A program made the position numbers and the translations under genes. The notes under the pieces were generated by a model. The model was not told the origin of the DNA. It worked only from the letters and a program-made list of their open reading frames with translations, and did no database searches. A stretch of DNA of 27,368 bases, taken from a virus. Where the stretch lies: positions 1-27,368 of the IMG/VR virus record IMGVR_UViG_3300042894_008599; one strand, given 5' to 3'. Of the stretch, positions 1,346 to 26,313 are shown in pieces (the first letter of the stretch is position 1; each line of letters starts with the position of its first letter).

Positions 1346-1361
1346 GGTTGGTTGGTTGGTT
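1346..1361. repeat. (GGTT)4 tetranucleotide run
   Basis: Four GGTT units lie just after the tail-fibre stop codon and form part of the leader of the 137-residue gene. On the transcript this reads CTAACCAACCAACCAACC. It is outside the coding region, so slippage would change leader length rather than a reading frame. Confidence 0.8.
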
Positions 1362-4119
1362 AGTAAGCGGGGAGACTGTTAAGAACGACGGCCTGAATAA
1401 CCCCTATTTCATGCTCCTTTGTATTGATCGATCCGGAATCGTTAAGAGCAGCAAAAGCAACATATCGATTTGCAGGTGAGCTTGTAGTTGACGGAGTGCC
1501 AGTGGTCATTTCGATTTGCTTGGAGCCATTAGATGCACGAACTGTAGAACCGTATCTCCAAATTGATACGATATAGTAATCATCAAGACCAGACATCGGA
1601 GTCAATGATCCTTCTGAATAAGATTTGCTGGTGTCATTATGGCACATGATATACACTCCATCACTTCGGAATTCTAGTCCGAATCCAGATGACGTTAGGT
1701 CTATCCCTCCAAGGGTGGCTGCAATTATAATTCTGTAAGTACAGCCACTTTGTACTCGTCCATTCATGACAAGGTGCAATCCATAATTCGTAAGGAATCT
1801 AGTACCGCTACTATAGTAACTACTATTGCCCGAATAAAAACACCTAGCGAGTGTCATGCTGGCGCTATATCCATTTGGAGTGTTTTCAGCTATGCGGATA
1901 TACCCAGGGTGCGGAAACGAGACAAACGAAGCATTGGATGTTGTGCCAGTTGTCGGGATCGGCAATCTAAAATATTTGTTTAAATTGTCCCTCAATGCCT
2001 GTGATACAAGTCCTGATGTAACAATCCTGTTGGTTTGGGTTAGCGAATTATTCTGACTTACATAAGGCCCGCTTGATGTAAGGTAGCCGAGTCGATCAAA
2101 AACGTAAGTCCACTCCATGAGCATCCCCACGGGATCGGTGGGGTGAATGTCGTTACCCGTCCCCGTCAGCCCGTCTGCCATTGGTTTCAAACCGTATGCG
2201 GGAGCCACGTCGATGAAGCTGTGATCGTTTGCGACGGCGATAGAACGTAAATACTTGGCTTGGTTGGATTGAGCCGTCAAGATCGATGAGTTATTTGTGC
2301 CAGATGTGTTTGCTGGAATCAGCAACCAGTGCGGCTGATCCGCCTTGACGGCGCTGAATCCGTTGTAAACATCGATCAGTGCCTGCAATTCTGGCAGCTC
2401 AGTGGTGGTATTGTCGGCGGTTTGGCAATAAAACAGATGTGGACGAACATTATTGAGAATCCCCTGTATGACCCACGGCTGAACCTGATTCCATTCGAGA
2501 ATCCCCATACCTCCCTCGTCCATCAGGTAGGCGGCTAGCCCATTGTCGTATCTTTTTTTGACTCTGGAGGTAATAATCGTCACCGATCCGCCTGAAATAT
2601 GTTTAATGTTCAGGCTGTAAACACTACCTCTTGGTACTTGGATTGTCGCAATACCCAATGCTTGCGCAGAGCCGTTGTTGGCGTCAATGGATGTGCCGAT
2701 AGTCGTGTATGGGCCAGCATTCGGCCCAACCTGTATTTCAAATGTGCCTGCTCCATTCTCTTTGATGTAGTAAATGGTTGCTTCGTCGAAAGCGATGTCA
2801 ACAACCGTGTCAATGCTTATTTTGACTCTTTTACCAGCAGACAAAACGCGAACTTTTTGAGTCGGCCAAAGGGTTCGATCTGTAACACTTGTCGCAGCAT
2901 CCGCACCTTCACCGCCCATCGCAAGGAAATCAAACCCAAGCTCAGAATATGAACCAAAACGATCAGGAATAATATCGTCAAGTAATCTATATCGCTTATT
3001 CCCGATGAGAGAATCACCGAAGAAAACAATCCTGGGCGACACGGATGGATTATTCTGCCTCTGAGCCGACAAACCTTGAGGAACCTTGATGATATCGAGC
3101 GATTGGATGTAGCGAGCATCCGAAAGCCCGCGCGTCATCGCGCTGTTGTCGGTCAGCGTCTGGCTGGATTGGCCAGATAGCTGGACGTGTCCTGTCAAGG
3201 TGGGGCTTGCAATATTTGCGGGAGTGTAACCAAGGGCGGTGATGACTTGAGCGCCCGTCGGTGTGACTCCACCCACGATATCAGCCGCCGTGATGGGCCG
3301 GTTTTTCCACTTGTCGCTCGATGCCTCGTAAAGCAGCGCGTCGCGATTTGCGAGACTGCTGATCGTGACGTTGTTCAGAGGTACGGGCGAGGATTCAAGA
3401 ATCCCAAGCGATGCGCGTTGCAGTGCGGCGGTGGCGGCTGTCAGTAAGGATCGTCCCTGTGCGGTGGAATCGGTGATCTGTGCCGAAGGAATATTATGGG
3501 TGTGGCTGACCGGAGCAAAGGCGGAGGAAGACTCGGTGGCGGCACTACCCAGCGCCAGCGCTATGCGCGCGCCAGGTGCATCATCCGCGAGCGCAGTTTG
3601 TACTGTGCTGGCGGTCACCGTGGCGGCGGATAGATCCGCCATAGAAATGACCTGCATGTCGCCGATCTCATCAAAGTAGATAGAGCCGTTGGCGCGGATG
3701 GCCGGTAATGGCAGTGTTGAGTTGCTGCCGGCAGGCTCGGCCTCGGGAAAGCGGATCGCCTGGCGGGTTTCGTCCTGTTCTCGGATCAGACGGGTGAGCT
3801 TGTCGAACTGCGCTTCAAAACGCTCGGCTGGCAGGCGAGTGTTGGTGATTAGATCAAGGTTTTGATCGCGGTCGGTGGCACGGATGAAGGTGAGTTTGCT
3901 GCCGCTTACTGGTGGGCTGGTAAACGTCACCGATGCGATGCCCGTGTCGGAAAGCGTGACCGAGTAATCAGTGCCGAGCGTTTTGAGAGATGCCGTGCCG
4001 TCAGCAAGTGTGACCCAGAGACGAAGCTCAGAGGTGCTGTTGACTTGTAGGGTGGTGTCGTAGTTCGCCCCACTGTTGGATACCATCCGGACAATCACCG
4101 GCTCGCTTGCAGAAACCAT
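1360..4119 (-). CDS. Tail fibre/spike with SGNH-hydrolase domain
   Basis: 919 residues. Residues 1-150 resemble the virion-anchoring N-terminus of T7 gp17-type fibres: VTL, GTDYSVTLSDTGIASVTF, ATDRDQNLDL, RFEAQFDKLTRLIREQDETR. A linker follows with beta-rich repeats (GHVQLSGQSSQTL). From about residue 360 there is an SGNH/GDSL-like esterase: FFGDSLIGN with Ser370, AMGGEGA (Gly402-403), TADN with Asn570, and NDIHPTDPVG with His659. A beta-rich block of roughly 110 residues sits between the second and third motifs. The last 240 residues are a probable receptor-binding beta domain. Likely role: adsorption, with removal of acetyl-type groups from surface glycan. The C-terminal half is about 42% GC versus about 60% at the N-terminus, suggesting exchange. 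The ATG at 4119 has an in-frame stop just upstream. Confidence 0.88.
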   Translation of the reverse strand: MVSASEPVIVRMVSNSGANYDTTLQVNSTSELRLWVTLADGTASLKTLGTDYSVTLSDTGIASVTFTSPPVSGSKLTFIRATDRDQNLDLITNTRLPAERFEAQFDKLTRLIREQDETRQAIRFPEAEPAGSNSTLPLPAIRANGSIYFDEIGDMQVISMADLSAATVTASTVQTALADDAPGARIALALGSAATESSSAFAPVSHTHNIPSAQITDSTAQGRSLLTAATAALQRASLGILESSPVPLNNVTISSLANRDALLYEASSDKWKNRPITAADIVGGVTPTGAQVITALGYTPANIASPTLTGHVQLSGQSSQTLTDNSAMTRGLSDARYIQSLDIIKVPQGLSAQRQNNPSVSPRIVFFGDSLIGNKRYRLLDDIIPDRFGSYSELGFDFLAMGGEGADAATSVTDRTLWPTQKVRVLSAGKRVKISIDTVVDIAFDEATIYYIKENGAGTFEIQVGPNAGPYTTIGTSIDANNGSAQALGIATIQVPRGSVYSLNIKHISGGSVTIITSRVKKRYDNGLAAYLMDEGGMGILEWNQVQPWVIQGILNNVRPHLFYCQTADNTTTELPELQALIDVYNGFSAVKADQPHWLLIPANTSGTNNSSILTAQSNQAKYLRSIAVANDHSFIDVAPAYGLKPMADGLTGTGNDIHPTDPVGMLMEWTYVFDRLGYLTSSGPYVSQNNSLTQTNRIVTSGLVSQALRDNLNKYFRLPIPTTGTTSNASFVSFPHPGYIRIAENTPNGYSASMTLARCFYSGNSSYYSSGTRFLTNYGLHLVMNGRVQSGCTYRIIIAATLGGIDLTSSGFGLEFRSDGVYIMCHNDTSKSYSEGSLTPMSGLDDYYIVSIWRYGSTVRASNGSKQIEMTTGTPSTTSSPANRYVAFAALNDSGSINTKEHEIGVIQAVVLNSLPAY

Positions 4120-4175: not shown

Positions 4176-7100
4176 TCAGTTGGGTCCTTCGATGTTTTTC
4201 AGCACCTTAACCAGATCGCGGACGATGTGGGCGGCACTGCCGGCGGCTGCTGCGTTGCCAGAAACGACAGCGCCCAGGGTGAGCACCCCTTCGAGGTCTT
4301 GCATCACCTCGTCAAAGTCACGTTCGCCGCGGAGAATATCGTCGAGATGGGCCGTGGCTTTGAAGCCATTGCCGATGCCATCAAGCAGGCTGCCGCTGCT
4401 TTTATATTCACCCGCCGCTCCCCAGATTCCCTTGCTGATTGCATCGCCAAGCAATGGGATGCCCTGGAACGGGCTGGTTAATGAAGCCAGCGCCAGGCGT
4501 TTTGGGTCCCAGTTGCGCTCGTCGAACCATTCCTTGTCATCATCGTCGCGGAGATCGCTCCAGATTGATCGCAGTAGAGTTGGAAGCACGCCACCCATCG
4601 CCCAGACTAGGGCGATCGGGGTGATCTTTTGGGCTGCGGTCTTGCCTTTGGAGGCGGCCAGCGAGGCGTAGATGATTTTCTGCCTGGCGTCGGATGCGAA
4701 GTTCCACATCAGCTTGGCCGCGGGATTGGTCACTGAGTTTTCGTAGTAGGATCGCGCACCCATGCGGGTCGGTTGTGCAACGCGGTCGGTGCTGCGCGCA
4801 GCGGCATCTTGGGCGTAGCGCTCGGCGGAAGCCCCAGAAAGCAGCAGGTCGGTTTCAGCGAGTTTGAGGTGGTAGTCGTAGAGGATCGCGTAGGTGCCCG
4901 CGGTGAAGAGTGCGTCGGCACCATTGATCAGTTTGCCGACCTTTTGCATGGCGAACTTCAGCTTCGACGGATTGCGATTGTTGAGCCCTTCCATCGCCTG
5001 GCGGACGATCGGTGGTTGTTCACCCAGGCGGCGCTGGATGTAGTCGCTAGCCATCGCCTTGCGCCATCCGAGGTCGCCCATCATCAGGCGGGTGAAGCGG
5101 GTGAGGTAGGCACCGCCAGGCATTTCGAGCGATGCCGCGGCGAGCTGCGTGCTTTGGATCATCAGCACCGATGCCCGTCCTACCAACGCGAGCGATGACA
5201 GGCGACCCGTGGCTTCACGGATCATTCGGTTTAGGAATAGGTTCGTTGATTTGTCGCGGATGCCGCCCTGGGCAAACAGGTCAATCCAGTTGCGCAGCAT
5301 GTTGACGGATTCTTCCCCGCTGGATGCTTTGATCGAATCCCCGACCTCGCGGTTATTGAGCAGCGACATCGCTTCGGTGGCGAGTGGTGCATAAGCCATC
5401 CAGTGTTCCATCTGGCGAGAGTGGCCGAGGAAGACTTGCAGTGCATCGTCGAGCCTTGGCTGAGCGATGGCAGATTGCGAGCGGGTGCGCAGGCTACCAG
5501 GAGTCATGCTCGTGCCTTGGGCAACAGCGCCGGTTTCCGCATCGATCAACTGCCCGCCTGGTGCGTTGAGCGGATCGACCGTGATCGGTGCATAGTTTTC
5601 ATTCTTCGGCAGGTTGATGCCGTAGAGGTCACGGAAGATCGGGTTAAGCCGCTGCCATTCGCCGGCGTAGCGATCCATGATGAAGAGTCGGATTGCCAGT
5701 GCCTCGGGACTGAGCTTGGATTCGATCTCCTGGATGTCTTGCTCGCGGTAGTGCCACTTGCCGACAGGGTTGCCATCGTCATCAAGGTGGCCGGTCATGT
5801 GGCGTTTGCCATCGGCCTGACGCCACATCAGCGTGGCGGTGATGGCTTCGAGCTGCGAGAAAGTGCTCTTGCGGTTTTTCCAGTCGAGGATGGAAATCCC
5901 CTGTGGATCGGCCAGCGCTTTGCGGAGTTTTTCCGCTTTGAATGAATCGCCGGCCAGGCGTGCCAACAAGTCATCGATGTCGCCACCCAGTTTTTCCATG
6001 GCGTCCTCCTTGGCATTGGAAGCACGGCGCTCCCAGTCGGCGAGATAGTTGGCGATGTCAGAATTTTCACCGAAGACCGTGTGAACGAGTGCCTCGAAGG
6101 ATTGCAGCGAGTGACCGAGTTTTTTGATCCAACCGGTGAGTTTGAGTTCCTTGTCTTTCTGGATGCGCACCTCTTCACGAGTGCCGTCCTTGCCGGTCGC
6201 CTGGATCAGAGAATCACGCTGACCCTGGCGGCGTTCGCTCTTGGCGCGCTGCTTGGCCTTGAATTCGGCATAGCCATTTTCAAACAAGGTAGTGGCCTCG
6301 GCAACCGCGGCGGCGCGCGCAGCGGCATCGAGATGGTGCCAGTTGCCGGCTAAACGGATCATCTGGGCAAGCTGGAGGAAGTGCGCCTCCTCATCGGGAG
6401 ATAGCTTGCCGTCGAGATTGGCGGCCTTGCCCTCGTATTTCACCGCCTCGGCTTCGGCATCGTCGCCATCCAGCGCCATCGCCCGTTCCATTTCGGTAAA
6501 CAGGGAATGGATGTCAGCCGTAATTTTTCCGCGTGGCTTCTCACCGGCGGCGGCCTTATTCGGTCTGGAGCGTTTGAGCAGCGCCTCCATCTCGTCGTCA
6601 AAGCGCTCACGGAGATAACTCTCCACGACCTTGTCGATTTTATTGAGTCGCTCGTTGAGGAATTGCAGGCGCTTCTCGTCAGTGCCGATCTTGGCAAGCT
6701 GGGTGTAGCCACCGATCTTGCCGCGCAGTTCGGTGGGCAGCGCCATCATCATCGCATCGAGCATGGCGAGCGAGCGCAGCAGTTGATTCTTGGGCGAGTA
6801 GTCGGAGGCCTCCTTGGCCATACGTTCTTTCATCCATTGCTTGGCCTCGTCTTTGGCGACCTTGCGGGCAGTCGCCACGTCGGCGCGGGCGGCCTTCATG
6901 TATTCCTTCATCTTGGCAACCGAGTTCGATTCGCGTTCGAGCGCCTGCCACATTGCGTCAGCAGTCGGCTCCTTGATCAGTCCGTTGTCGAAGAGTTCCT
7001 GGGCTGCCTGGTCAGGTGCCAGGGTGCCACCGAAGACGCTGCGAGAGATACCATCGGCACCATCGTAGTCGCCTTGTTTCTTTGGATCGAAGAACGTCTC

Positions 7101-10100
7101 GCCGCGGGCGATTGCCTGGCTCTGACTCATCAGGCGGCCGCGCAGCGGACTGTCGGGGTTGCCCAGGTATTCGTGAACCGGTTGCGACTTCAGTTTGGCC
7201 AAGTCGGCATTGTCGAGAATCCCATTATTCTTGGCGTGGGCCTCGTCCTCCAGTTCAGCGCGGCGGGTCGCTTCACGGAAGGCAGCCTCCTTGCGGATGC
7301 TGGCGGTCTTCCGCGGGTCTTCGATCATGCTCCGCTTGTAACCCTTGCCAAAGGCAATGCCGAGCTCATCGCGGTCGCGGCGCAGCTTCGCCAAGTTATC
7401 GAGCATCCGCTGGAAGATCGCGCGGCGAACCTCGGGATTGCGGTTTCTTGCCGTCGCGTTGAGCGACAAGCCATCAACCATCGAAACGGGGGCTAGGGAG
7501 AAGGAGCTATCATTGACTTCTGGCAAAGGCGAAGCTCCTGGATTGACTCTCCCTGTGACTAGATCCGTGACTCGGATTTGGCCGTTTTTATCCTTGAGGA
7601 AATTATCTTTGTTTAGATCCGAGACAAAATACTCCTCACTGTTTACCTCAATTCTGGAAATTAATCCTTGGCTCGGGACGATGTTGAAAGGCAAACGCAG
7701 AGCTTCGTATTCCGCATCGGTGATTGGAGTGCCATATTCCTGGACCAAGTAATGAGCCCCATCGCTTTCAATCGCCTGTGTCGGCATCCCACCAAGGGCA
7801 TTGATTACCTCAGCCTTGCTTCTTACGTCTTCCAGATCCGTACTGCGGATCAATCTGCCGTCGGGATCGTAGTGCCAGATTCCCTTGGCACGGATAGACT
7901 TGAGAACAAGATTCTCGCCGAAGGAGATGACATCGCTTTCAGTGCCACGTCCAATTGTTCGCTCGCTTCCTTCTGCCTTTGCTCGGGCGATTTCGCCTCG
8001 AATTCCCGACGGGCTTCCTCCCGCGCCTTGTCCAAGGCTGCTTTGTGGGAAGGTGGAACGGGAAATGTCACGGCGTCTTTCATCGGTGTGATTGCTGTCA
8101 TAAAGATTTGATGGTGCATTGCCAAGTGAAAACGCAGTTCCTGAATCTTCGGCGGTGGTCGATTCTCCGAAATAGCCGAATTCGGCCAGATCATCCATGG
8201 CCCAGCGAACCTCTTGCGCCTTCACCTCAGAAACCCACACCTTGGTGTTTTGGTCTGGATCGATGCCCATGGCGTGCGTGCGTGCGTATTCCTTGGAGAG
8301 CGTCACCCAGTCGCCCTGGTTCATCTCGGCCTTGGGGCCGGCTCGGAAAATCTTGAGAAGTCCCTCAGGGTTGTTCCGCACCTTTTTCAGTTGGGCCATC
8401 GTCTCGCGAACAATCTTTGACCCCATCCCCGTGTACCATTCGGGGTGATCGTAAACGTCTGCTGGCATGAGTTCGCCTTCGGCCAGGTCGTGCGCGCGAG
8501 GGCCTTCCTCCGACGGACGATGGTTGATTCCATAGTCGGGGGAGAGAGAAAAGGCGGAAGATCCGTTCTCTTGCACCCGTTCACCCACAATGTCAGATTC
8601 CAATCCGTAAAAAGTAGGAGTCCTTGAGAAAAGCCCCATTTCCATCCCGCTGGCATACCAATTCCGACCTTTTTCATCTACGTAATCCACCACGATGTCC
8701 GTCAACAGGTTGGCGCGGTTCATGCCGTGGAAGTTGTTGATCAGCCGCTCCGCTTCCAATTTGGACGCGGCCTTCGCATGGAGCATCAGCCACGCACCGC
8801 CTTGGCTGAGTGTGTATTCCGAAATTTGCTCCCGAGTGAGTTGAAGAATATTAATCGCCGAGCCGGTAAAGGTCGCCGCAATCGCTCCCCTGGCGGTGGT
8901 GATAAACCCGATAATGTGATCAGGATTCCCCCGGTCGGATTCAATGTCGCGGGAAATTGAAGCGATTCGATCCGCGCTCAATGCTTGCTGCCCAATGTCA
9001 TTCACCCCGTCGATCAGCCTGCTTGGCCATGCGTAAGGATTTACTTCCGCGCCAGCTTCACGCAGCGCGGACGGCGAAATGGCGTGACCGTTGACCACAC
9101 CTACATCGTCAATCGTGGCAAATGACGCATGATTGATCACCACATGATTCACCATTTGAATTCCGTGCTTTTTCATTTCCGCCGAGTGCATCAACGTCAC
9201 GCGGAGATCAGCCGACGAAGGGCTTGGGTCGCCACTCGGGTGGTTGTGCATCAGGAAATAACTGTCCGCCTTGGCGGCTTGCAGGAATGCCAAGTGATCC
9301 GCCAGTCCGTCTGCATTGTTCTTTCCGTCCGCAAAAATCGCGGCCGAAGTCGGGACGCGGGCAGTGATGGCCATGGCGTCAAGAATCTGATACCCAGCAC
9401 CGCCTTTGTGGCGCTTGGTCCGGCGTTTCGCCGCCAGCAGGTAAAAAGTCTCAAACCGTGGATTCCGCAGCGCCTGCGCTTTCACCGCCAACTCTTCCGG
9501 CGATCCAATGGTTTCACCGATAAACCTTACTTGCAGATCCGTTTCGAGGTCGCGCGCAAGTCGCTGCCGTATGATGGATGCGTTTCCGATTCGTCCGCGT
9601 AAATCCCCTTCTTGATCCAGTTCTTTTTCGCCGGAAGCTTTACCAGAATCCCCTTCGAGGATACTTTGCGCGAAGTCGAGTAAGAGTTGACGTTTGTCTT
9701 CATAAGAAGCCTTGGGTTGCTCCAAACGTAGCGCGTCTTCACCGATCCTGTCAATAAGCGAGTCGCGCAGGTCGGTCGGGCTGCCTTTGAATAATGACCC
9801 CATCGAAAACGGTTCGTTGTCGGTGGGGACAAAGTCATTGAGCGCCTTCAGCTCAGCCTGCACCGCTGCGTCGTGTTCGCCCTGGTAGTCGCGGCCGGTG
9901 AGCTTATCGAGAAACGCCTGGTGATCGGCCTCGTTGAGCTTGCCTTCGCGGATGGCCTTTTTCATCGCCAGGGCGCGGGCGCTGGCAAGACCCATCACGC
10001 CGCGCAGGGATTCGAGGAAGGCGCGGAATTTCTGGGTGGCGCCAGGTGCGAGTTTTGCCAGGGCGATCATGTTGCGGGAGATGATGCCATTGGCGAGCGG

Positions 10101-12755
10101 GATCGACTTGTCGCCCACGTTGCGCTTGCGGGTGCGCAGTAGCTCAGCCTCGATGATTTTCTGGATGGCCTCATCGAGCATCTTCGGGGTGACATCGGCG
10201 TCGGCGATTCCTTCGTTGAGCAGAGCAAGACGTTGTCCCGCCTGATTTCCGCGGCGCAGCACCTGGGCATTCATTACATTGTCCACGGCACGGACGAAGG
10301 CCAGCTCGTCAGCGTGGGTGATTTCGCCGGCAGCGCGCAGTTGCCGCAGCATGCCGTGACCGGTTTCATGGGTGAGCGTAAGAACCGATGATCCAGCAAA
10401 GAGCCGGTTGGTAAAGCTGCGCACGGTGCCGCGCAGGGTTTCTTTATTCTGCCCCAGGGCGATGCGGGTGATGTTGCCGGTGCCTCCATTGAGAACCTCC
10501 TCGTCGGCGACCTGTTGTTGGAACTGGTCAATGTGGCGTGGGTCTTCCGCGGCAGCCACGGCCTCGGTGTAGAGCGTTCCTAGCTCGAAGCTGTTCTGGG
10601 AATTCGGATCAAGCGCTTGGAGGTTTTCGCCCGCCTCCAACATCGAGGCGATGTAGGACATCTTCTCCGCGCGCTGTTCGCTGAGAGCAGCGCTGTGATT
10701 GCTTGCCAAACGGAATGCCGTAGCCTTGTCGGGTGCTTGGCCGATCTCTTGTCCGCTTTCACCATCGAGCACCTGGTAGCCATCCGCCGACTGGACGATG
10801 CGCGGCATCCATCCGCTTTGTTGGGCGCGCTCCATGGCAGCCTTGCGCTCCACCGACTGCTGCATGAGATCCTCGACGGCACCCTTGGCACTGTCGCTGT
10901 TGGCGTCGGAACGTTCGGCTGCGGCCGCGAGCGCGGCATTGGCCGAAGCAACGCCCTTGCCAACCGCCTCGCGGAAAACCGGAACATCATCGGGATGCAT
11001 CCCGCCGGCCAGCAGTTGTGTGTCGCTGGCTTCTGAGAATGCTTTAATTCTTGAATCCTTGAATGCGCTGACACCTGCACCAAAGATTGCCAGTGGTAGC
11101 ATCGTCACCATCATCTCCGCGTTCTTGGTCCAAAATCCGTCGAGAACCCCACCCTTGCCCGTCCACTGAACATCGGGAATGTCTTGTTCAAGAGCATGGC
11201 CCAGGTCTTGGATGACGGCGGGTACTAAGTCTTGGAGATTTTCCAAAGTCCCTTCTTCGATCGTACCTGCACCAGTTCTTACGGCAAACCGCAGCGCGCG
11301 CGACTTCACCCCATCCATGACCGAGGTTAGCGCCTTTTCAAATATCGGCAGTCTACCGGCAAAGGCTTCGATCTGGAGTTTCTCCATCAACACCTGTGGC
11401 ACCGCGGCAAAAGGTGCCAGTTCACCGGCGTACTTGGCGGCATCCTTGTACGACATCCCCTTGTCTTGAAAATCCTGACGATAGTCCTGATAGATGGATT
11501 CCTGCGAGCTAAGGTAAAAGGCAGCCATTCCGACATAGGGAATCGCCGCACTGGCAGATGTTACAATGGCACCAGGCGCACCATAGGCTCCCTTCTCAAA
11601 AATTCGAGCCAAGCTTCCATCCTTGGCCAGGTACTTCATCGGGTCATAGCTGGCTTGTTGAATGCGAGCCACGCTTGCCTGGAAGTCGATCCGCTCTCGA
11701 GTTGTCGCAGAGTCTTTCAAGTTTTGCTCATGGCGCTGCATTCCTGCTTCCATCTGTGACGGATAAAGATCGGGCATGCCGCCAGTACGCGAATCGCGCG
11801 AGGCTTCCCCAAGGACGCCCGCATTGACCTCCACCAGGTTCATCATGTTAGTCCCAAAGCCTTTGATGTCCCGCCCGCTCTGCTTCACAATGTTTGACCA
11901 AAATGTAGCCTGCTCTGCGTCTGGCAGTGATCCCGACCTGACCTTGAGCGCGGCTAAAAATGTATCGCGCTCTCTTTCATCCAGCGAAAAATACGCATCT
12001 CCCGCAGCCTTGGCGTAGTCACCTTTGCTGGTGAAAGCATTCCAGACCGAGTCCAGTTCGGGGCGGAATGCATCCACCTGGTCTTTGACCTCAGACTGAA
12101 TCTCGTGCCACGCTGCGTAGTAGTCAGCTTCTTTGGCAGGATCGTAGCCAGGTTGGTTTTTTGCACTGTCCTTCCAGGTGCTGAACCCGCGCTTCGGATC
12201 GTTATCAGCCAGGAAGCTGTCTTTGGATGCAGCCCTGGATAATTGAGAACCCATCTCGCGCGAGTCCTTGCGGTCTTGGGAATACTTCACCACCTCGGCG
12301 TGGAACGATTCCTCGCTATCCGCGCCGCGGTCATTGAAGTAGAGATGAGAGGCGCGAACGCGTGCGAGGTGCCGGCCAAATGGCGACGGGTCAGCGGGAG
12401 CATCGTCACTGGTGTAGTGGAGGAACGCGTCGTTGGTGAGCTGGAGTTGTGCCGCGGAATCGACACCATCCTTGGCGTAGTACTTCGCAGGATCGAGTGC
12501 AGCCTGGTCCACTTGGCTCATGCCATTGATGCGCCACTCTTTTAACGTCTGCTGGTATTCCTCATTCTGCTTTTGCCGTTGTTGCTCTGTTTGAATCCAC
12601 GGATTCTCCCCAAATCCCTGGCTAACCAAGTCGGGAGATGCCGCGGCATCGGGTAACATAGCTGCCTCGGTCAGCGGTTTAACGTCAGTGGCTAGATTCT
12701 CCAGTGGGTCTTGAGTTGAGGAATCGGCAAAATTAGAAATCAGGGTAATAGCCAT
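4176..12755 (-). CDS. Giant polyvalent internal virion protein: metallopeptidase, RadC/JAB, ART-like and kinase-like regions plus gp16-like C-terminus
   Basis: 2859 residues, about twice T7 gp16 (1318 aa), in the same genomic place. Visible order: an N-terminal helical region with hydrophobic segments near 388-415 and 543-562; a zinc metallopeptidase motif HETGH (His796, Glu797, His800); a RadC/JAB domain about 1080-1220 with HNHPSGDPSPSSAD, matching the JAMM spacing (His1170, His1172, Ser1180, Asp1183); an ADP-ribosyltransferase-like region 1435-1530 (FRAGP Arg1471, GDWVTLS with Ser1487, EFGYFG with Glu1525); a kinase-like region 1600-1740 (GRGTESD, Lys1619, SDLNKDNF with Asp1713 and Asn1718, TDL Asp1731); a charged helical region 1770-2300; and a conserved C-terminus with hydrophobic stretches near 2515-2540 and 2705-2730. 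This fits the 'polyvalent protein' class, probably ejected into the host with the DNA. Activities are predicted from motifs, not shown. Confidence 0.88.
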   Translation of the reverse strand: MAITLISNFADSSTQDPLENLATDVKPLTEAAMLPDAAASPDLVSQGFGENPWIQTEQQRQKQNEEYQQTLKEWRINGMSQVDQAALDPAKYYAKDGVDSAAQLQLTNDAFLHYTSDDAPADPSPFGRHLARVRASHLYFNDRGADSEESFHAEVVKYSQDRKDSREMGSQLSRAASKDSFLADNDPKRGFSTWKDSAKNQPGYDPAKEADYYAAWHEIQSEVKDQVDAFRPELDSVWNAFTSKGDYAKAAGDAYFSLDERERDTFLAALKVRSGSLPDAEQATFWSNIVKQSGRDIKGFGTNMMNLVEVNAGVLGEASRDSRTGGMPDLYPSQMEAGMQRHEQNLKDSATTRERIDFQASVARIQQASYDPMKYLAKDGSLARIFEKGAYGAPGAIVTSASAAIPYVGMAAFYLSSQESIYQDYRQDFQDKGMSYKDAAKYAGELAPFAAVPQVLMEKLQIEAFAGRLPIFEKALTSVMDGVKSRALRFAVRTGAGTIEEGTLENLQDLVPAVIQDLGHALEQDIPDVQWTGKGGVLDGFWTKNAEMMVTMLPLAIFGAGVSAFKDSRIKAFSEASDTQLLAGGMHPDDVPVFREAVGKGVASANAALAAAAERSDANSDSAKGAVEDLMQQSVERKAAMERAQQSGWMPRIVQSADGYQVLDGESGQEIGQAPDKATAFRLASNHSAALSEQRAEKMSYIASMLEAGENLQALDPNSQNSFELGTLYTEAVAAAEDPRHIDQFQQQVADEEVLNGGTGNITRIALGQNKETLRGTVRSFTNRLFAGSSVLTLTHETGHGMLRQLRAAGEITHADELAFVRAVDNVMNAQVLRRGNQAGQRLALLNEGIADADVTPKMLDEAIQKIIEAELLRTRKRNVGDKSIPLANGIISRNMIALAKLAPGATQKFRAFLESLRGVMGLASARALAMKKAIREGKLNEADHQAFLDKLTGRDYQGEHDAAVQAELKALNDFVPTDNEPFSMGSLFKGSPTDLRDSLIDRIGEDALRLEQPKASYEDKRQLLLDFAQSILEGDSGKASGEKELDQEGDLRGRIGNASIIRQRLARDLETDLQVRFIGETIGSPEELAVKAQALRNPRFETFYLLAAKRRTKRHKGGAGYQILDAMAITARVPTSAAIFADGKNNADGLADHLAFLQAAKADSYFLMHNHPSGDPSPSSADLRVTLMHSAEMKKHGIQMVNHVVINHASFATIDDVGVVNGHAISPSALREAGAEVNPYAWPSRLIDGVNDIGQQALSADRIASISRDIESDRGNPDHIIGFITTARGAIAATFTGSAINILQLTREQISEYTLSQGGAWLMLHAKAASKLEAERLINNFHGMNRANLLTDIVVDYVDEKGRNWYASGMEMGLFSRTPTFYGLESDIVGERVQENGSSAFSLSPDYGINHRPSEEGPRAHDLAEGELMPADVYDHPEWYTGMGSKIVRETMAQLKKVRNNPEGLLKIFRAGPKAEMNQGDWVTLSKEYARTHAMGIDPDQNTKVWVSEVKAQEVRWAMDDLAEFGYFGESTTAEDSGTAFSLGNAPSNLYDSNHTDERRRDISRSTFPQSSLGQGAGGSPSGIRGEIARAKAEGSERTIGRGTESDVISFGENLVLKSIRAKGIWHYDPDGRLIRSTDLEDVRSKAEVINALGGMPTQAIESDGAHYLVQEYGTPITDAEYEALRLPFNIVPSQGLISRIEVNSEEYFVSDLNKDNFLKDKNGQIRVTDLVTGRVNPGASPLPEVNDSSFSLAPVSMVDGLSLNATARNRNPEVRRAIFQRMLDNLAKLRRDRDELGIAFGKGYKRSMIEDPRKTASIRKEAAFREATRRAELEDEAHAKNNGILDNADLAKLKSQPVHEYLGNPDSPLRGRLMSQSQAIARGETFFDPKKQGDYDGADGISRSVFGGTLAPDQAAQELFDNGLIKEPTADAMWQALERESNSVAKMKEYMKAARADVATARKVAKDEAKQWMKERMAKEASDYSPKNQLLRSLAMLDAMMMALPTELRGKIGGYTQLAKIGTDEKRLQFLNERLNKIDKVVESYLRERFDDEMEALLKRSRPNKAAAGEKPRGKITADIHSLFTEMERAMALDGDDAEAEAVKYEGKAANLDGKLSPDEEAHFLQLAQMIRLAGNWHHLDAAARAAAVAEATTLFENGYAEFKAKQRAKSERRQGQRDSLIQATGKDGTREEVRIQKDKELKLTGWIKKLGHSLQSFEALVHTVFGENSDIANYLADWERRASNAKEDAMEKLGGDIDDLLARLAGDSFKAEKLRKALADPQGISILDWKNRKSTFSQLEAITATLMWRQADGKRHMTGHLDDDGNPVGKWHYREQDIQEIESKLSPEALAIRLFIMDRYAGEWQRLNPIFRDLYGINLPKNENYAPITVDPLNAPGGQLIDAETGAVAQGTSMTPGSLRTRSQSAIAQPRLDDALQVFLGHSRQMEHWMAYAPLATEAMSLLNNREVGDSIKASSGEESVNMLRNWIDLFAQGGIRDKSTNLFLNRMIREATGRLSSLALVGRASVLMIQSTQLAAASLEMPGGAYLTRFTRLMMGDLGWRKAMASDYIQRRLGEQPPIVRQAMEGLNNRNPSKLKFAMQKVGKLINGADALFTAGTYAILYDYHLKLAETDLLLSGASAERYAQDAAARSTDRVAQPTRMGARSYYENSVTNPAAKLMWNFASDARQKIIYASLAASKGKTAAQKITPIALVWAMGGVLPTLLRSIWSDLRDDDDKEWFDERNWDPKRLALASLTSPFQGIPLLGDAISKGIWGAAGEYKSSGSLLDGIGNGFKATAHLDDILRGERDFDEVMQDLEGVLTLGAVVSGNAAAAGSAAHIVRDLVKVLKNIEGPN

Positions 12756-12761
12756 GGGAAA

Positions 12762-14864
12762 TTAGGAAGGGTATCCGTTGAGGAAGAGAGCGCGCTCAGA
12801 CTTGCGTCGGCGTTCCAAGCCGTCGGATGGTTTGCCATCGGCATTGCGGTAGAGCAGCATGGCATCGGCAATCTCCGCTTTGCTGCGCTTGCCATCAGCA
12901 AGCAGCGTGCGAAGACCACCGTCCCCAGTTCCCAGATTGTGGGAAAACGAAATGAGCGCATCAAGTTCATTGGGCTTGAGAACTAATCCGACGCGTTTGG
13001 TCTCGGTTTCCACCTTGCGACGAGTTTCCTGGATTTCAGATGTCAGCCGCTTTTCGGCCTCGGCGGCGGTGATCGTTTCACCCTTTTTAGAAAGTGTTCC
13101 GTAGCCAATGCTCCACTGCTTATTGTCCCAGTAGGCATTGACCTGGGAATCCTTGATCGGACCACCTGATTCCCAGCTCTTGATCGTATCCATCAGGTTA
13201 GAGCCAGCAGGCATCACCATGCTGGTCGATGAATCGCGGGAGGGTTTCGGAGCCAGCTTAGCGGCGTTCAGATTATCGATGACGTACTGGCCGCCGATCT
13301 CTTTGAGCTTCTTCTCAAACTGCTCGCTGGTCGCATCTGGGTTGAGGCGTGACCATTCTGCCAGCTTGTTTTTAGCGGCGCCGAGCGCCTGGTCAGCGCG
13401 GCTATTTGCGTCCAATGCAGCCGTGGCTTTATCAGAATTGATGTAATCCACTTCGGCCGCACCGCGGTAAAGTGCCTCGCCCATTTTCCAGACGGCTTGA
13501 TCGACCTTGGGATCGGCCTTGCCTCGCTGGGTCCAGAGTTGTTGGAACGTTTCCTCGCGTTTGGCATCGGTCTGCTTGGTCTTGTCAGCGCCGTCAATGA
13601 TCGCAGTCGCCTGCTCCTCGCTGTATCCCAGGCTCAGCAGCTTGGGACGTGACTGGAGGAAGCCTGAGCGGATTTCTTCCGATACCTTCATCCGTTGTTC
13701 AACGGGAACTACCATGCCAAAAGCACCCGTCTTGGCCGCGGCTTCCAGCGATTGAATGCCGGCGTCGAAATTCGTCTTCACCTGGTGCTCTTTGAAACTG
13801 CGCTTGCCATCCAGCCGATCCATCAGGTCTTTGCGGTTGGGATTGTTTTCCGAGAGTCGGAGGATTTTTCCACGAATCTCGATGCCCGCTTCATCCGGTC
13901 CTTCCCCCAGGGTGGGGGTATAGTCGCGCAGCATTCGCGATGCCTCTCCTGCAAGACGATCCTGTGTTTCTGGTTTGCCGTTCTCGATCTTCGCCTGGTC
14001 GCTTTCAAATTGGCGGGCGTAGTTGAGAACTGAATTTAATACCTCGGGTCGCAGTGTATTGCCATACTTCTGAGTAAGCTGATCGGTCGTCAGGCCACGC
14101 ACTGCATCATCCTGAGCGTTGTTGACCGCTCCGGTCAGGTTCTCACGAAGCTGAGCCTTCGCGCGGGTGATGCTGCGGTCGCGCATATCCAGCGTGGCAC
14201 CAGGGTGATCCTGGATGAAACTCGGGGAACTGAGTCGTTCAAGCGTCGTTTGTGGATCGGCTTTAATATCCTCGCCAATGTGGTACTCTGCCTCATGTTC
14301 GGAGATTTTTGACATCGCTACCGCACCGGCCTCGGGTGTCCATACGCCACTGGTGACTCCCAGGTTGACGGCGTTTCTCGCCTCAACATAATTGCCAGAT
14401 GCCATCGAAGTGTTCGCCAACAGACTGATTCTCGCATTCCCTTGCTCCACGGATTTCACCGCGGCCTGGGTTTCCAGATGAATCTTGGTTCTGCTGGTCC
14501 AGTCTGCCAGTTGCTCGTTTGCACGCGCCATTCCATCGGCAGAAAGATTGAGTTTTTTGAGCCCATCATTCCACCCGCCGACCTTCTCTTGGAATTCATT
14601 GCTCCAGTTTTGAGTATCGCTGCGCTTTAGAAGATCATTTGAGAACTTGGCTGCCTCCTCGTTGCGCTGACGCATGAAATCCGCGGTCTTGCCGGCTTCG
14701 TCGTACTTGCGAACCTTCTCAGCCAACTCGAACCCTTTTACTCCGACCTTGGCAATAGTCTCACCCATGCGAGCCATTGCTTCGCCCTGGGCCATGGCGA
14801 CTCCTGGTTTGGCAAGTGGCACGCCAGGGCCGGCGTCAATGTAGCGAGTGGGTGGTAATGGCAT
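12762..14864 (-). CDS. Internal virion protein (gp15-like) with C-terminal lysozyme domain
   Basis: 700 residues. The first 540 are mostly long charged helices (for example GFELAEKVRKYDEAGKTADF), typical of podovirus inner-core proteins. From about residue 555 there is a GH24-type muramidase: SWESGG with candidate acid Glu565, AYWDNKQWSIGYG with Asp580 and Ser585 where most relatives have Thr, then NELDALISFSHNLG and a DGLERRRKSERALFL ending. The Glu-to-Asp spacing is longer and the Asp-to-Ser spacing one shorter than in T4-type lysozymes. It would locally open peptidoglycan during DNA ejection. In T7 the equivalent wall-cutting domain is a transglycosylase on gp16, so the job sits on a different core protein here. 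The gene starts 14 bases after the upstream stop, without a clear Shine-Dalgarno, and ends 6 bases before the giant gene. Confidence 0.85.
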   Translation of the reverse strand: MPLPPTRYIDAGPGVPLAKPGVAMAQGEAMARMGETIAKVGVKGFELAEKVRKYDEAGKTADFMRQRNEEAAKFSNDLLKRSDTQNWSNEFQEKVGGWNDGLKKLNLSADGMARANEQLADWTSRTKIHLETQAAVKSVEQGNARISLLANTSMASGNYVEARNAVNLGVTSGVWTPEAGAVAMSKISEHEAEYHIGEDIKADPQTTLERLSSPSFIQDHPGATLDMRDRSITRAKAQLRENLTGAVNNAQDDAVRGLTTDQLTQKYGNTLRPEVLNSVLNYARQFESDQAKIENGKPETQDRLAGEASRMLRDYTPTLGEGPDEAGIEIRGKILRLSENNPNRKDLMDRLDGKRSFKEHQVKTNFDAGIQSLEAAAKTGAFGMVVPVEQRMKVSEEIRSGFLQSRPKLLSLGYSEEQATAIIDGADKTKQTDAKREETFQQLWTQRGKADPKVDQAVWKMGEALYRGAAEVDYINSDKATAALDANSRADQALGAAKNKLAEWSRLNPDATSEQFEKKLKEIGGQYVIDNLNAAKLAPKPSRDSSTSMVMPAGSNLMDTIKSWESGGPIKDSQVNAYWDNKQWSIGYGTLSKKGETITAAEAEKRLTSEIQETRRKVETETKRVGLVLKPNELDALISFSHNLGTGDGGLRTLLADGKRSKAEIADAMLLYRNADGKPSDGLERRRKSERALFLNGYPS

Positions 14865-14878
14865 AAAATTAAGATGGT

Positions 14879-15355
14879 TTATTTGCTAGCGGCAAAGGCG
14901 CTCGCCGCTTGCCCGACTCCTTGGAATCCACTGGCAACTGCCTGGGTACGCATCACACTAGCACTCGATTCACCTTCCCAGATCGACATATTGGCAGATG
15001 CCTGAAGCGATCGCGACTTATTGGCGGCATCATAGCCAATGTCCAAGATGTCGCGACTGAGGAATGTTGAGGTTTCACCGAGGATCGCCAACGGAGTTCC
15101 TTCCATCGACATCCCGCTTTCCGCCAAGGCAGCGCGCTGGCGACCGATGATTCCTGCGTTTTCTCGCTGCTTGCGGCGTGCATTTTCAGCAGCGGCATTG
15201 GTCTGGCGCACTGATTCATCACGCTGAATCTGGGCATTGTACTTGCCAGTTTGTTCCGCAGCTTTAGCCGCATCGAGCTGACCCTTGACGGAAATGGCGG
15301 TTCCGACAGCGATAGAGGTTGCTGCGACTACTGCTGCTGCTGCAAAAAATGCCAT
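14879..15355 (-). CDS. Internal virion protein (gp14-like)
   Basis: 158 residues from the ATG at 15355, which overlaps the stop of the preceding gene as TAATG. A longer frame from 15394 adds 13 residues that lie inside the cupin gene, so I prefer the coupled start. It begins MAFFAAAAVVAATSIAVGTA, a hydrophobic helix. Next comes a long helix rich in Gln, Asn and Ala (YNAQIQRDESVRQTNAAAENARR), then QRAALAESGMSMEGTPLAIL and an alanine-rich end. This is the pattern of T7 gp14-type inner-core proteins, which enter the outer membrane during ejection. Position directly before the gp15-like and gp16-like genes supports the call. Confidence 0.78.
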   Translation of the reverse strand: MAFFAAAAVVAATSIAVGTAISVKGQLDAAKAAEQTGKYNAQIQRDESVRQTNAAAENARRKQRENAGIIGRQRAALAESGMSMEGTPLAILGETSTFLSRDILDIGYDAANKSRSLQASANMSIWEGESSASVMRTQAVASGFQGVGQAASAFAASK

Positions 15356-15801
15356 TAGGGTTGATCTTCTAAAGTTGGATGTTGGAGTTTCCACTGGTTA
15401 AGCAGGTGCTCTGGCAGTAGGGGATTAACGTGCGGTTCGAGAATTGCTTCCCCGATTTTTTCTACATCAGTTTCATCGGTCGCGTGAAAGGTGGTCCAAA
15501 CCGTATCGGTTTCGGCGTAAAGAACGCGGCGGGTGCCTGGCTGGGTGATCCCGCAGTAAGGCGCCTGGTAAACGACCTTGCCCTCATTCTCCGACATGAC
15601 ATGGATGCAGCCCTTAGAAATGACAAATGGATGCTCGGTGCGGTGCTCCATACTGGTGCCGAGTGTGCCGGCAGGAATGAAGATTTCGCGGATGTACATC
15701 CCAGGCGTGAAGCGGTGAACGACAGGGCAGTCAGCAGCGCCGTGAACCGCCAGTGCAGCCTCAAGCTCATCGATGCGAGTCATGGATTGCAGGTCATTCA
15801 T
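15355..15801 (-). CDS. Cupin-like phage structural-module protein
   Basis: 148 residues. The central beta-rich stretch looks like a small cupin barrel: REIFIPAGTLGTSMEHRTEHPFVISKGCIHVM, then QPGTRRVLYAETDTVW and TFHATDETDVEKI. Histidines in MEHRTEHP and FHATD could bind a metal, although no full cupin metal-binding set can be confirmed by eye. Similar small proteins occur among tail genes of other T7-like and BPP-1-like podoviruses, where the role is unknown. The ATG overlaps the nozzle stop codon (ATGA) and the stop overlaps the next start, so it is tightly coupled to virion genes. A carbohydrate-binding or virion-decoration role is only a guess. Confidence 0.65.
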   Translation of the reverse strand: MNDLQSMTRIDELEAALAVHGAADCPVVHRFTPGMYIREIFIPAGTLGTSMEHRTEHPFVISKGCIHVMSENEGKVVYQAPYCGITQPGTRRVLYAETDTVWTTFHATDETDVEKIGEAILEPHVNPLLPEHLLNQWKLQHPTLEDQP

Positions 15802-20499: not shown

Positions 20500-21462
20500 T
20501 TAGCGACTGCCGCGCTTTGCTTGGCTCGCATCGAGCTCGTAAAGCGCATGAATCCGGCTGCTGGCTTCGGAGTCATTGCGCCACTTTGGATTTGCCTTCA
20601 TGATCTCGACTGCCTGTTGACGTGGACTGTGACTGCCCGTATTAACTTCATTTCCGACACCTGGCAGCGGTGCCTCACGCAGCGCCCGCCGTGCCTCATC
20701 GATCACGCGCACCACCTTGGGATGGGATAGCGCTGCTTGCATCGCGGGATCAGATAATTCATCAGCGGCAAATCGCGATTGCACAAATGCACGGTTGGCT
20801 TCCAGTCGCGAATCGTAGTTATCGCCCCATTCCTTTTGAAATGTCTGTTCGGATGCCTGGGCAAACTGAGCAACCTTCACATTGAATGCTTCAAATGCTC
20901 CATCACGCTGGCCACCCAGGCTATCGATGTGCTTTTGAATGAGCTCGTGGGCAGCCGCGGTGGGAATGTGATGTTTGTGGAAAATCTCTGCGTAAGGTTT
21001 CATCGCAGAGTCATCCCACTGCACACCGTCTGGCAGCTTTTCCGGCTTGAAGGCATAGCCATCTAGATTCTCTGGAACACCTGCATCGCGGCGGAATGCC
21101 GAAACGTCATCCTCCGCGGCACCTGCCTTTGGATAGCTGATGCCGGTCGACTTCTTGCCGACAAATCCGAGCGTATCATCCATCATCCGCATCAGTGTTG
21201 CCTCATCCTTGGCCGTAGCAGCCTTGGTCGCCAGGCGCTCGAACCCTGCTTCTCGCAGGCTTTCTGTCCATCCCTCGTTGAAGGTGCCTCCCTTCTGGAC
21301 ATGATCGCCAAACCATCCGCTTTTCGCGGGCTCGCTGCTGGTTGTTGCTGCCTGGGCATTGCCTCCCATGAATCCGCCTGGCGACGGAGTAGGAGTGGAC
21401 GTTGGGGTGGAATCTCCGACAGATGCCGGAGCCGATTCGATTGCGCTGGTGGATTCGCTCAT
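20500..21462 (-). CDS. Scaffold / capsid assembly protein
   Basis: 320 residues, acidic and mostly helical. The first 45 residues are Ser/Thr/Pro-rich and probably disordered (ending TPSPGGFMGGNAQ). The middle carries the usual phage scaffold wording: RDAGVPENLDGYAFKPEKLPDGVQWD, then EIFHKHHIPTAAAHELIQKH and FAQASEQTFQKEWGDNYDSRLEANRAF (read as separate stretches). The basic C-terminus (ELDASQAKRGSR) could contact the capsid protein, as in other scaffolds. It precedes the major capsid gene, and its start overlaps the upstream small gene's stop by four bases. No protease gene is seen, so scaffold loss without cleavage, as in T7, is likely but inferred. Confidence 0.82.
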   Translation of the reverse strand: MSESTSAIESAPASVGDSTPTSTPTPSPGGFMGGNAQAATTSSEPAKSGWFGDHVQKGGTFNEGWTESLREAGFERLATKAATAKDEATLMRMMDDTLGFVGKKSTGISYPKAGAAEDDVSAFRRDAGVPENLDGYAFKPEKLPDGVQWDDSAMKPYAEIFHKHHIPTAAAHELIQKHIDSLGGQRDGAFEAFNVKVAQFAQASEQTFQKEWGDNYDSRLEANRAFVQSRFAADELSDPAMQAALSHPKVVRVIDEARRALREAPLPGVGNEVNTGSHSPRQQAVEIMKANPKWRNDSEASSRIHALYELDASQAKRGSR

Positions 21463-25969: not shown

Positions 25970-26313
25970 CAGAATGGAATATCGTCGTCCTCGTCAGAAT
26001 AGGCTGGTGCCGCGGTGGTTTTAGAATGAGCCGCCTGCTCGTAGGGCGTGCGCGCCTGTGGTGCCGCCGGTGCCTGTCTCGCTTGCGGTGCCGAATGGTA
26101 TGCCCCAGGATCATGCTCCTTCTTCGGATAGAGTGACACCCACCCGCTCCACTCGGGACCGACCGGTATGCACTTCAGCTTGATGCTGACGCGTCCCTGG
26201 TCATCCGTGAATGCCTTGCCGACGTTGGTGTACTCTTTTTTCTTTTCGCCGTCTCGGTTGGTGTATTCTCCAGTCGTCGCGACGGCATCGTGGGTGTATT
26301 GGGCTTTGGCCAT
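25969..26313 (-). CDS. SSB-like single-stranded-DNA-binding protein
   Basis: 114 residues. The first 70 form a small beta-rich region: YTHDAVATTGEYTNRDGEKK, VGKAFTDDQGRVSIKLKCIP, GWVSLYPKK. A disordered Ala/Pro/Gln/Ser linker follows, and the protein ends SDEDDDIPF. The final DDDIPF is identical to the end of the E. coli SSB tail that recruits replication and repair enzymes. The size and layout match compact phage SSB-like OB-fold proteins. It should coat single-stranded DNA and recruit host partners. It is preceded by an A-rich leader without Shine-Dalgarno and overlaps the next gene as TGATG. Confidence 0.75.
   Translation of the reverse strand: MAKAQYTHDAVATTGEYTNRDGEKKKEYTNVGKAFTDDQGRVSIKLKCIPVGPEWSGWVSLYPKKEHDPGAYHSAPQARQAPAAPQARTPYEQAAHSKTTAAPAYSDEDDDIPF

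What the first reader, a model, noticed from the sequence alone, without database searches (positions are those of the whole stretch)
4176..12755. One virion protein carries four distinct enzyme signatures
The sequence shows HETGH (residues 796-800), a full JAMM motif (1170-1183), an Arg/Ser/Glu ADP-ribosyltransferase-like triad (1471/1487/1525) and a kinase-like Lys/Asp/Asn/Asp set (1619/1713/1718/1731) in one uninterrupted 2859-residue frame, followed by a C-terminus of the type seen in podovirus ejection proteins. Phage polyvalent proteins are an established class, but this combination in the gp16 slot looks like a virion-delivered toolkit that could disarm host defence or modify host proteins at the moment of DNA entry. 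The combination may be undescribed.
Basis: partly seen in the sequence, partly recalled or inferred. Interest (0 to 1): 0.8.

Follow-up and report, generated by a model that had tools for sequence, protein, structure and literature searches.

The report
Phage ejection protein with swappable cassettes
A short-tailed phage carries one giant protein, in the slot for proteins injected with its DNA, that holds a string of interchangeable enzyme-like modules, and in it and about 50 relatives the modules are separated by the same three-residue tag, which looks like a cutting signal and can be tested directly.

Summary
In detail: 4176-12755 (MINUS strand) is one open 2859-residue frame and every motif sits where stated. 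It is a polyvalent protein in the internal-virion (gp16-position) slot of a podovirus, a class described in 2017. The four enzyme calls are unequal. RadC/JAB is solid. A zincin-like domain is well supported: it is conserved family-wide, but HExxH alternates with EExxH. Kinase is weak but plausible. ADP-ribosyltransferase is unproven: a real, conserved phage domain with R and E invariant, but no detectable similarity to any known ART. 'Disarms host defence' is untested.

The new part was not in the finding. Relatives keep both protein ends and swap the middle as cassettes, and cassette joints carry a tag [FY]S[ILVM] (window residues 983, 1402, 1542, 1752). In 25 non-redundant relatives 58% of tags lie at a homology break against 16% background (P 1e-21), while control tripeptides mostly do not. 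Of 1650 tripeptide classes this one ranks first. Codons vary, so it is kept mainly as peptide. No paper found mentions it. Best reading: a delivered polyprotein cut at the tags, possibly by its own zincin; cutting is inferred, not shown.

The parts
4176..12755 (-). Giant polyvalent protein, 2859 aa
10689..12755 (-). N-terminal scaffold, residues 1-689, shared by relatives
   Evidence: Residues 330-690 matched in 41 and residues 1-330 in 15 of 52 relatives
9801..10688 (-). Zincin-like domain, residues 690-985, ending in tag 1
10356..10370 (-). HETGH, residues 796-800
   Evidence: HExxH in 15 and EExxH in 21 family members
9801..9809 (-). Tag 1, FSM, residues 983-985
   Evidence: P-F-S identity 1.0/0.88/1.0 across 17 proteins against 0.30 in the linker before it
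8553..9800 (-). RadC/JAB cassette, residues 986-1401
   Evidence: Pfam PF04002 E 5.9e-10; PDB 2qlc E 2.6e-5; same cassette at array positions 1, 2 and 4 in the family
9207..9248 (-). JAMM motif HNHPSGDPSPSSAD, residues 1170-1183
   Evidence: kept in L002, L010, L012, L019 and L081
8544..8552 (-). Tag 2, FSL, residues 1402-1404
8133..8543 (-). Cassette with R-S-E triad, residues 1405-1541, ART-like, identity unproven
   Evidence: phrog_2579 E 1.3e-22; relatives; BFVD matches E to 2e-10; no match to known ARTs
8124..8132 (-). Tag 3, FSL, residues 1542-1544
7503..8123 (-). Kinase-like cassette, residues 1545-1751
   Evidence: Kinase-PolyVal profile aligned at D1713/N1718/D1731; window scores 10.1 bits against a shuffle maximum of 4.8 in 500; no BLAST relative
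7494..7502 (-). Tag 4, FSL, residues 1752-1754
4179..7493 (-). C-terminal scaffold, residues 1755-2859, conserved core from about 1985
   Evidence: 56 IMG/VR loci; core found in 52 of 52 relatives; no PDB match and no clear PHROG match
12762..14864 (-). Upstream virion lysozyme protein, 700 aa (gp15 position)
   Evidence: PF00959 E 1.1e-17; syntenic in relatives
14879..15394 (-). Small internal virion protein (gp14 position)
   Evidence: phrog_418 E 6.4e-17
1360..4119 (-). Downstream tail fibre gene
   Evidence: phrog_1640 E 9.6e-10; syntenic in L019 and L021

Best explanation
The ORF encodes a polyvalent ejection protein. SHOWN: conserved N-terminal and C-terminal scaffolds, a zincin-like domain always present before the cassette array, and between zincin and C-core a set of exchangeable cassettes (here RadC, an R-S-E domain and a kinase-like domain) whose joints carry the tag [FY]S[ILVM]. 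INFERRED from gene order: it is packaged and enters the host with the DNA, after the lysozyme protein. INFERRED, most likely: the tag is a peptide recognition or cleavage site, so that the delivered chain is cut into separate enzymes in the virion or the cell, possibly by its own zincin domain. INFERRED, open: what each cassette does to the host. My split: polyvalent ejection protein with tag-bounded cassettes 0.9; tags are processing sites 0.45; the in-cis zincin does the cutting 0.25.
For: Synteny scaffold-MCP-tubes-148aa-IVP-lysozyme-giant-fibre-endolysin in relatives. Ends conserved, middle swapped. Cassettes in relatives match the polyvalent Pfam vocabulary: ART-PolyVal, Kinase-PolyVal, LPD3, LPD37, RadC, PRTase. 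Tag at joints: 69% of 207 against 12-29% for control tripeptides; first of 1650 classes; non-redundant set 57 of 98, P 1.4e-21, most controls flat. Peptide-level conservation: 29 different 9-mers for 54 tags; tag identity 0.88-1.0 in a linker of 0.30. Tag 1 lies in a low-confidence stretch of the model, as expected of an exposed linker. The zincin-like domain is found in all 43 family members that keep the N-terminus. Iyer et al. 2017 proposed zincin processing of polyvalent proteins and cite the processed P1 DdrB.
Against: No cleavage data exist. 21 family members have EExxH and 7 neither motif, yet most keep tags, so either EExxH is active or another protease acts. N4 virion RNA polymerase, with a zincin domain, is packaged uncut (cited). 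Polyvalent-type proteins of sequenced phages that share cassettes show no tag enrichment, and bacterial-genome polyvalent proteins show it only weakly. In the window protein alone tag number is not unusual (5 against 2.4 expected); only position and relatives carry the signal.
Confidence: 0.5

Rival explanations
1. The tag is only the footprint of how cassettes are grafted: a short preferred joint inherited with each module, with no processing.
For: Codon identity between tags of one protein is above expectation (0.53 against 0.41), a sign of shared origin or exchange; tags sit exactly where blocks begin and end.
Against: Synonymous codons and F/Y, I/L/V vary freely while the residue classes stay; the tag after the zincin is near-invariant although no exchange is visible on its N-terminal side.
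Confidence: 0.25
2. The tag is a structural or docking element, for example an initiation point for unfolding through the portal or a binding site for a carrier protein, and the chain is never cut.
For: An ejection protein of this size must pass the tail channel; tags lie in linkers between modules.
Against: No partner is known; nothing here favours it over cutting.
Confidence: 0.2
3. One reading: four active enzymes, including an ADP-ribosyltransferase and a protein kinase, delivered to disarm host defence.
For: RadC domain, zincin-like fold, conserved R and E, kinase profile signal.
Against: No match of the R-S-E domain to PDB, Pfam or T4 ModA/ModB; kinase signal marginal (E 0.015 among 501 sequences); RadC is not known as a peptidase; no defence target indicated.
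Confidence: 0.12
4. The protein is not in the virion but acts late in the cell.
For: No virion data exist for it or its relatives.
Against: Its place between lysozyme internal protein and tail fibre is constant, and it shares the polyvalent cassette set.
Confidence: 0.05

Closest known systems
Polyvalent proteins of phages and conjugative elements (Iyer et al. 2017, PMC5512222)
   Same: Giant chain with zincin, RadC, kinase-like and other domains, next to virion genes, cassette shuffling; Pfam PolyVal/LPD families in close relatives.
   Different: RadC occurs here in a phage-type protein, which that survey lists only for conjugative elements; an R-S-E domain instead of the H-Y-D ART; a repeated inter-cassette tag, not found in searches of that text.
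Kinase-PolyVal (PF18762)
   Same: Order of G-x-G-x-E, VLK, Q-E-Y, D-x4-N and D motifs, and lack of a C-lobe; weak profile match at the catalytic residues.
   Different: No Pfam hit; histidine of the D-L-H motif is N.
phrog_2579 'ParB C-terminal domain' proteins of Gordonia, Rhodococcus and Mycobacterium phages
   Same: Homologous to residues 1406-1536.
   Different: There it is a solo or small protein, beside virion genes in the Gordonia and Rhodococcus phages.
T7 gp16 and podovirus ejection proteins
   Same: Gene position and order.
   Different: No sequence similarity detected; lysozyme is in the neighbouring protein.
N4 virion RNA polymerase C-terminal region
   Same: HExxH domain followed by a large helical C-terminal domain, packaged and ejected (PMC12633501, PMC5512222).
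   Different: No polymerase here; no detectable sequence match of the C-core in the PDB.
Prohead-protease maturation of giant phages (SPN3US gp245, PMC10052503)
   Same: Repeated short cleavage motifs in head proteins of a phage that ejects proteins.
   Different: Motif there is A-X-E; no clear prohead protease was recognised in this window (one weak PHROG label).

Membership tests
Polyvalent proteins (Iyer 2017) | Two or more domains of disparate activity in one chain | tested here: met
   RadC by Pfam plus zincin-like domain and further cassettes
Polyvalent proteins (Iyer 2017) | Phage late-gene or virion context | tested here: met
Polyvalent proteins (Iyer 2017) | Domain vocabulary shared with known members | tested here: met
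   Close relatives carry PF18760, PF18762, PF18798, PF18853
Polyvalent proteins (Iyer 2017) | Delivered into host with DNA | not testable with these tools
   Only inferred from gene order
Zincin-like metallopeptidase | HExxH plus downstream Glu helix in an alpha/beta core | tested here: met
   E108 and H111 of the alignment and downstream E173 invariant in 17; strands, then HExxH helix, then E helix in the model
Zincin-like metallopeptidase | Fold match to solved zincins | tested here: inconclusive
   Top and repeated hits are lethal-factor-type zincins but E 0.12, prob 0.57
MPTase-PolyVal PF18818 | Pfam profile match | tested here: not met
RadC-type JAB | Profile match with complete JAMM motif | tested here: met
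   E 5.9e-10 above Pfam cut-off; NCBIfam RadC below cut-off; 2qlc
R-S-E ADP-ribosyltransferase | Conserved R, S, E | tested here: met
   R and E invariant, S in 7 of 8
R-S-E ADP-ribosyltransferase | Profile or fold match to a known ART | tested here: not met
Kinase-PolyVal | Profile match | tested here: inconclusive
   No Pfam hit; own 15-sequence profile ranks it above 500 shuffles
T7 gp16-type ejection protein | Syntenic position before tail fibre | tested here: met
T7 gp16-type ejection protein | Sequence homology | tested here: not met

The most novel reading that the evidence does not exclude
[FY]S[ILVM] is the cleavage signal of a virion-delivered polyprotein system: phages load any effector cassette flanked by the tag into one ejection protein, and a protease (its own zincin or a partner) releases them as separate enzymes on entry, as in a viral polyprotein.
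Probability: 0.35. Interest if true: 0.85.

Novelty: new variant of a known kind. Interest (0 to 1): 0.6.

Why it matters
Whether and where polyvalent proteins are cut has been open since 2017. A three-residue tag that marks the joints turns that into a direct experiment, gives a simple way to find module boundaries in giant phage proteins, and delimits many unnamed candidate host-targeting domains. It also widens the known phage cassette set (RadC in a phage-type protein).

Tried and rejected
Kinase relatives by single-sequence scans of IMG/VR, GTDB contigs and phages: none. Loose searches for PF18762 and PF18818 in related contigs: no hits, although PF18762 is present in L032 by direct scan, so those two searches were not sensitive. 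AlphaFold of the R-S-E plus kinase region: R-S-E part confident, kinase part not folded for lack of relatives. Foldseek of that model against PDB: nothing significant; one IcmQ hit at E 5 not used. hhalign of the R-S-E family against T4 ModA/ModB: none. MAFFT alignment of three kinases (A5) was wrong and discarded. First reading of L019 and L029 as having lost the zincin motif was corrected: they are EExxH, as is most of one clade. Tag as a general feature of all polyvalent proteins: not supported by proteins of sequenced phages, weak in bacterial-genome ones. Tag as pure DNA recombination seed: not favoured by codons. Own prohead protease: the only candidate label (phrog_458 on the ORF at 20503-21462) is weak, and that protein looks like a scaffold by position and composition.

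Full report
What is there. The stated interval is one open frame of 2859 codons on the minus strand. All named motifs are present at the named residues. The window is a 27.4 kb viral contig. Read along the minus strand it encodes small and large terminase subunits, portal (PF12236), a scaffold-like protein, major capsid protein (PF19821), two tail-tube proteins, a 148-aa protein, a small internal virion protein (phrog_418), a 700-aa protein with phage lysozyme, the giant protein, a tail fibre and an endolysin. This resembles the order of T7 genes 8 to 17 (own knowledge), with the giant protein in the gp16 position. The same order recurs around the giant ORF in relatives. By sequence it is not related to any known ejection protein.

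How good are the four enzyme calls. (1) JAMM: a RadC-type JAB domain, Pfam E 5.9e-10 and PDB 2qlc E 2.6e-5, in a 400-residue cassette found in L002, L010, L012 and L019, with the same motif in L081. Iyer et al. argue that RadC JABs lack the ubiquitin-tail groove and probably act on nucleic acids or nucleotides, so 'peptidase' is not the default reading. (2) HETGH: residues 690-985 form a domain found in all 43 family members whose N-terminus is present. Fifteen have HExxH, 21 have EExxH and 7 neither; a profile of the window's own clade recognises all 18 members of the other clade that were tested (best E 1e-5 to 1e-8), so they are homologous. The AlphaFold model (pLDDT 68) has strands, a HExxH helix and a following helix carrying the invariant Glu; the best solved matches are lethal-factor-type zincins, weakly (E 0.12), the same reference fold that Iyer et al. 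reached for their zincins. (3) R-S-E: residues 1405-1541 are a real domain family of phages (phrog_2579; BFVD matches to E 2e-10), with R and E invariant in 8 proteins and S in 7. No test linked it to a known ART. It stays 'ART-like, unproven'. (4) Kinase: no BLAST relative, but a profile built here from 15 Kinase-PolyVal proteins scores the window 10.1 bits against at most 4.8 for 500 shuffles and aligns FVSDLNKDNFLKDKNGQIRVTDLV with the family's catalytic end. The family traits given by Iyer et al., a glutamate before strand 2 and a glutamine at the end of the N-lobe, are present (GRGTES, YLVQEYG). Weak support.

Relatives and modularity. 56 IMG/VR loci encode the C-terminal core; three MAG contigs labelled Acidobacteriia, Akkermansiaceae and Verrucomicrobia also do. 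Pairwise comparison shows conserved ends and a variable middle. The RadC cassette is first in the array in this window and L002, second in L010 and fourth in L019; the R-S-E cassette is first in L003, L053 and L071 and second here. Cassettes elsewhere match ART-PolyVal, Kinase-PolyVal, LPD3, LPD37 and a phosphoribosyltransferase. So the four-signature combination is one draw from a shuffled deck.

The tag. Joints carry [FY]S[ILVM], typically [SANPT][FY]S[ILV][GRAS]. In this protein the joints are at 983, 1402, 1542 and 1752; one further match at 256 is not at a joint. Test 1: of 207 tags in 53 proteins, 69% lie within 8 residues of the end of a BLAST homology block; tripeptides of similar make-up 12-29%; background 20%. 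Test 2: scan of 1650 tripeptide classes; this class leads at log10 P -43, the next at -12 and mostly overlapping forms of it. These P values treat related proteins as independent; therefore Test 3: 25 representatives below 70% identity, 57 of 98 against background 15.8%, binomial P 1.4e-21; nine control classes at 9-26%, of which only [FY]S[AGT] falls below P 0.05 (P 0.02). Test 4: DNA. In the window's clade 54 tags use 29 different 9-mers, with TTT and TTC equal and both TCN and AGY serines; codon identity between tags of one protein is 0.53 against 0.41 expected, so some shared history, but conservation is mainly of the peptide. Test 5: after the zincin domain, P-F-S has pairwise identity 1.0/0.88/1.0 in 17 proteins while the preceding linker has 0.30 and the domain itself 0.39. 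Limits: polyvalent-type proteins of sequenced phages that share cassettes show no enrichment; twelve polyvalent proteins from bacterial genomes show 40% of 43 tags at joints against 7-34% for controls. The tag is thus a feature of this family with a weaker echo elsewhere.

How it most likely works. Gene order suggests packaging and ejection after the lysozyme protein has opened the wall (inference). Iyer et al. proposed that zincins cut polyvalent proteins so that disparate domains can separate, citing processed P1 DdrB, while N4 virion RNA polymerase is packaged uncut. A tag of this kind is what a processing protease would need, and the zincin-like domain always lies before the array and, in this clade, ends at tag 1. 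This is the explanation I commit to, at 0.45 for processing and 0.25 for the in-cis zincin as the cutter. The main objection is that EExxH members keep the tags. Grafting joints or docking elements are the rivals.

Novelty. The class is known. New against the literature searched (open-licence papers only): the inter-cassette tag, the HExxH/EExxH alternation in this scaffold, and RadC in a phage-type polyvalent protein, where the 2017 survey listed RadC only for conjugative elements. An R-S-E ART in a polyvalent protein would also be new against that survey, but that identity is not established.

Noticed in passing
relatives L005, L007, L008, L009, L019, L029, L030, L032 and others, residues about 785-860: The zincin motif HExxH is replaced by EExxH in 21 relatives, including most of one clade, with the rest of the domain conserved; either an active variant or a pseudo-enzyme kept for structure.
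   Followed up: partly
window 15358-15801: A 148-aa protein (phrog_12032) with a cupin-like look is 50-63% identical in distant relatives in which the major capsid protein is only 22-32% identical, and it overlaps the next gene.
   Followed up: no
window 25972-26313: A 114-aa protein ends in DDDIPF, the tail typical of single-stranded DNA-binding proteins.
   Followed up: no
window 20503-21462: ORF with a weak PHROG 'protease' match (phrog_458) looks like a scaffolding protein by position and composition; the label is doubtful.
   Followed up: partly
L081, L082, L083: Relatives of the giant protein sit on contigs binned as Acidobacteriia, Akkermansiaceae and Verrucomicrobia, a hint at hosts of part of this phage family.
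   Followed up: partly
L019 residues 1310-1561 and L010 residues 1942-2200: A shared cassette, matched by the phosphoribosyltransferase domain model in L019, bounded by tags in both.
   Followed up: no
window 12752-12800: No clear Shine-Dalgarno sequence before the giant ORF's ATG; it starts 6 bases after the lysozyme gene's stop.
   Followed up: no
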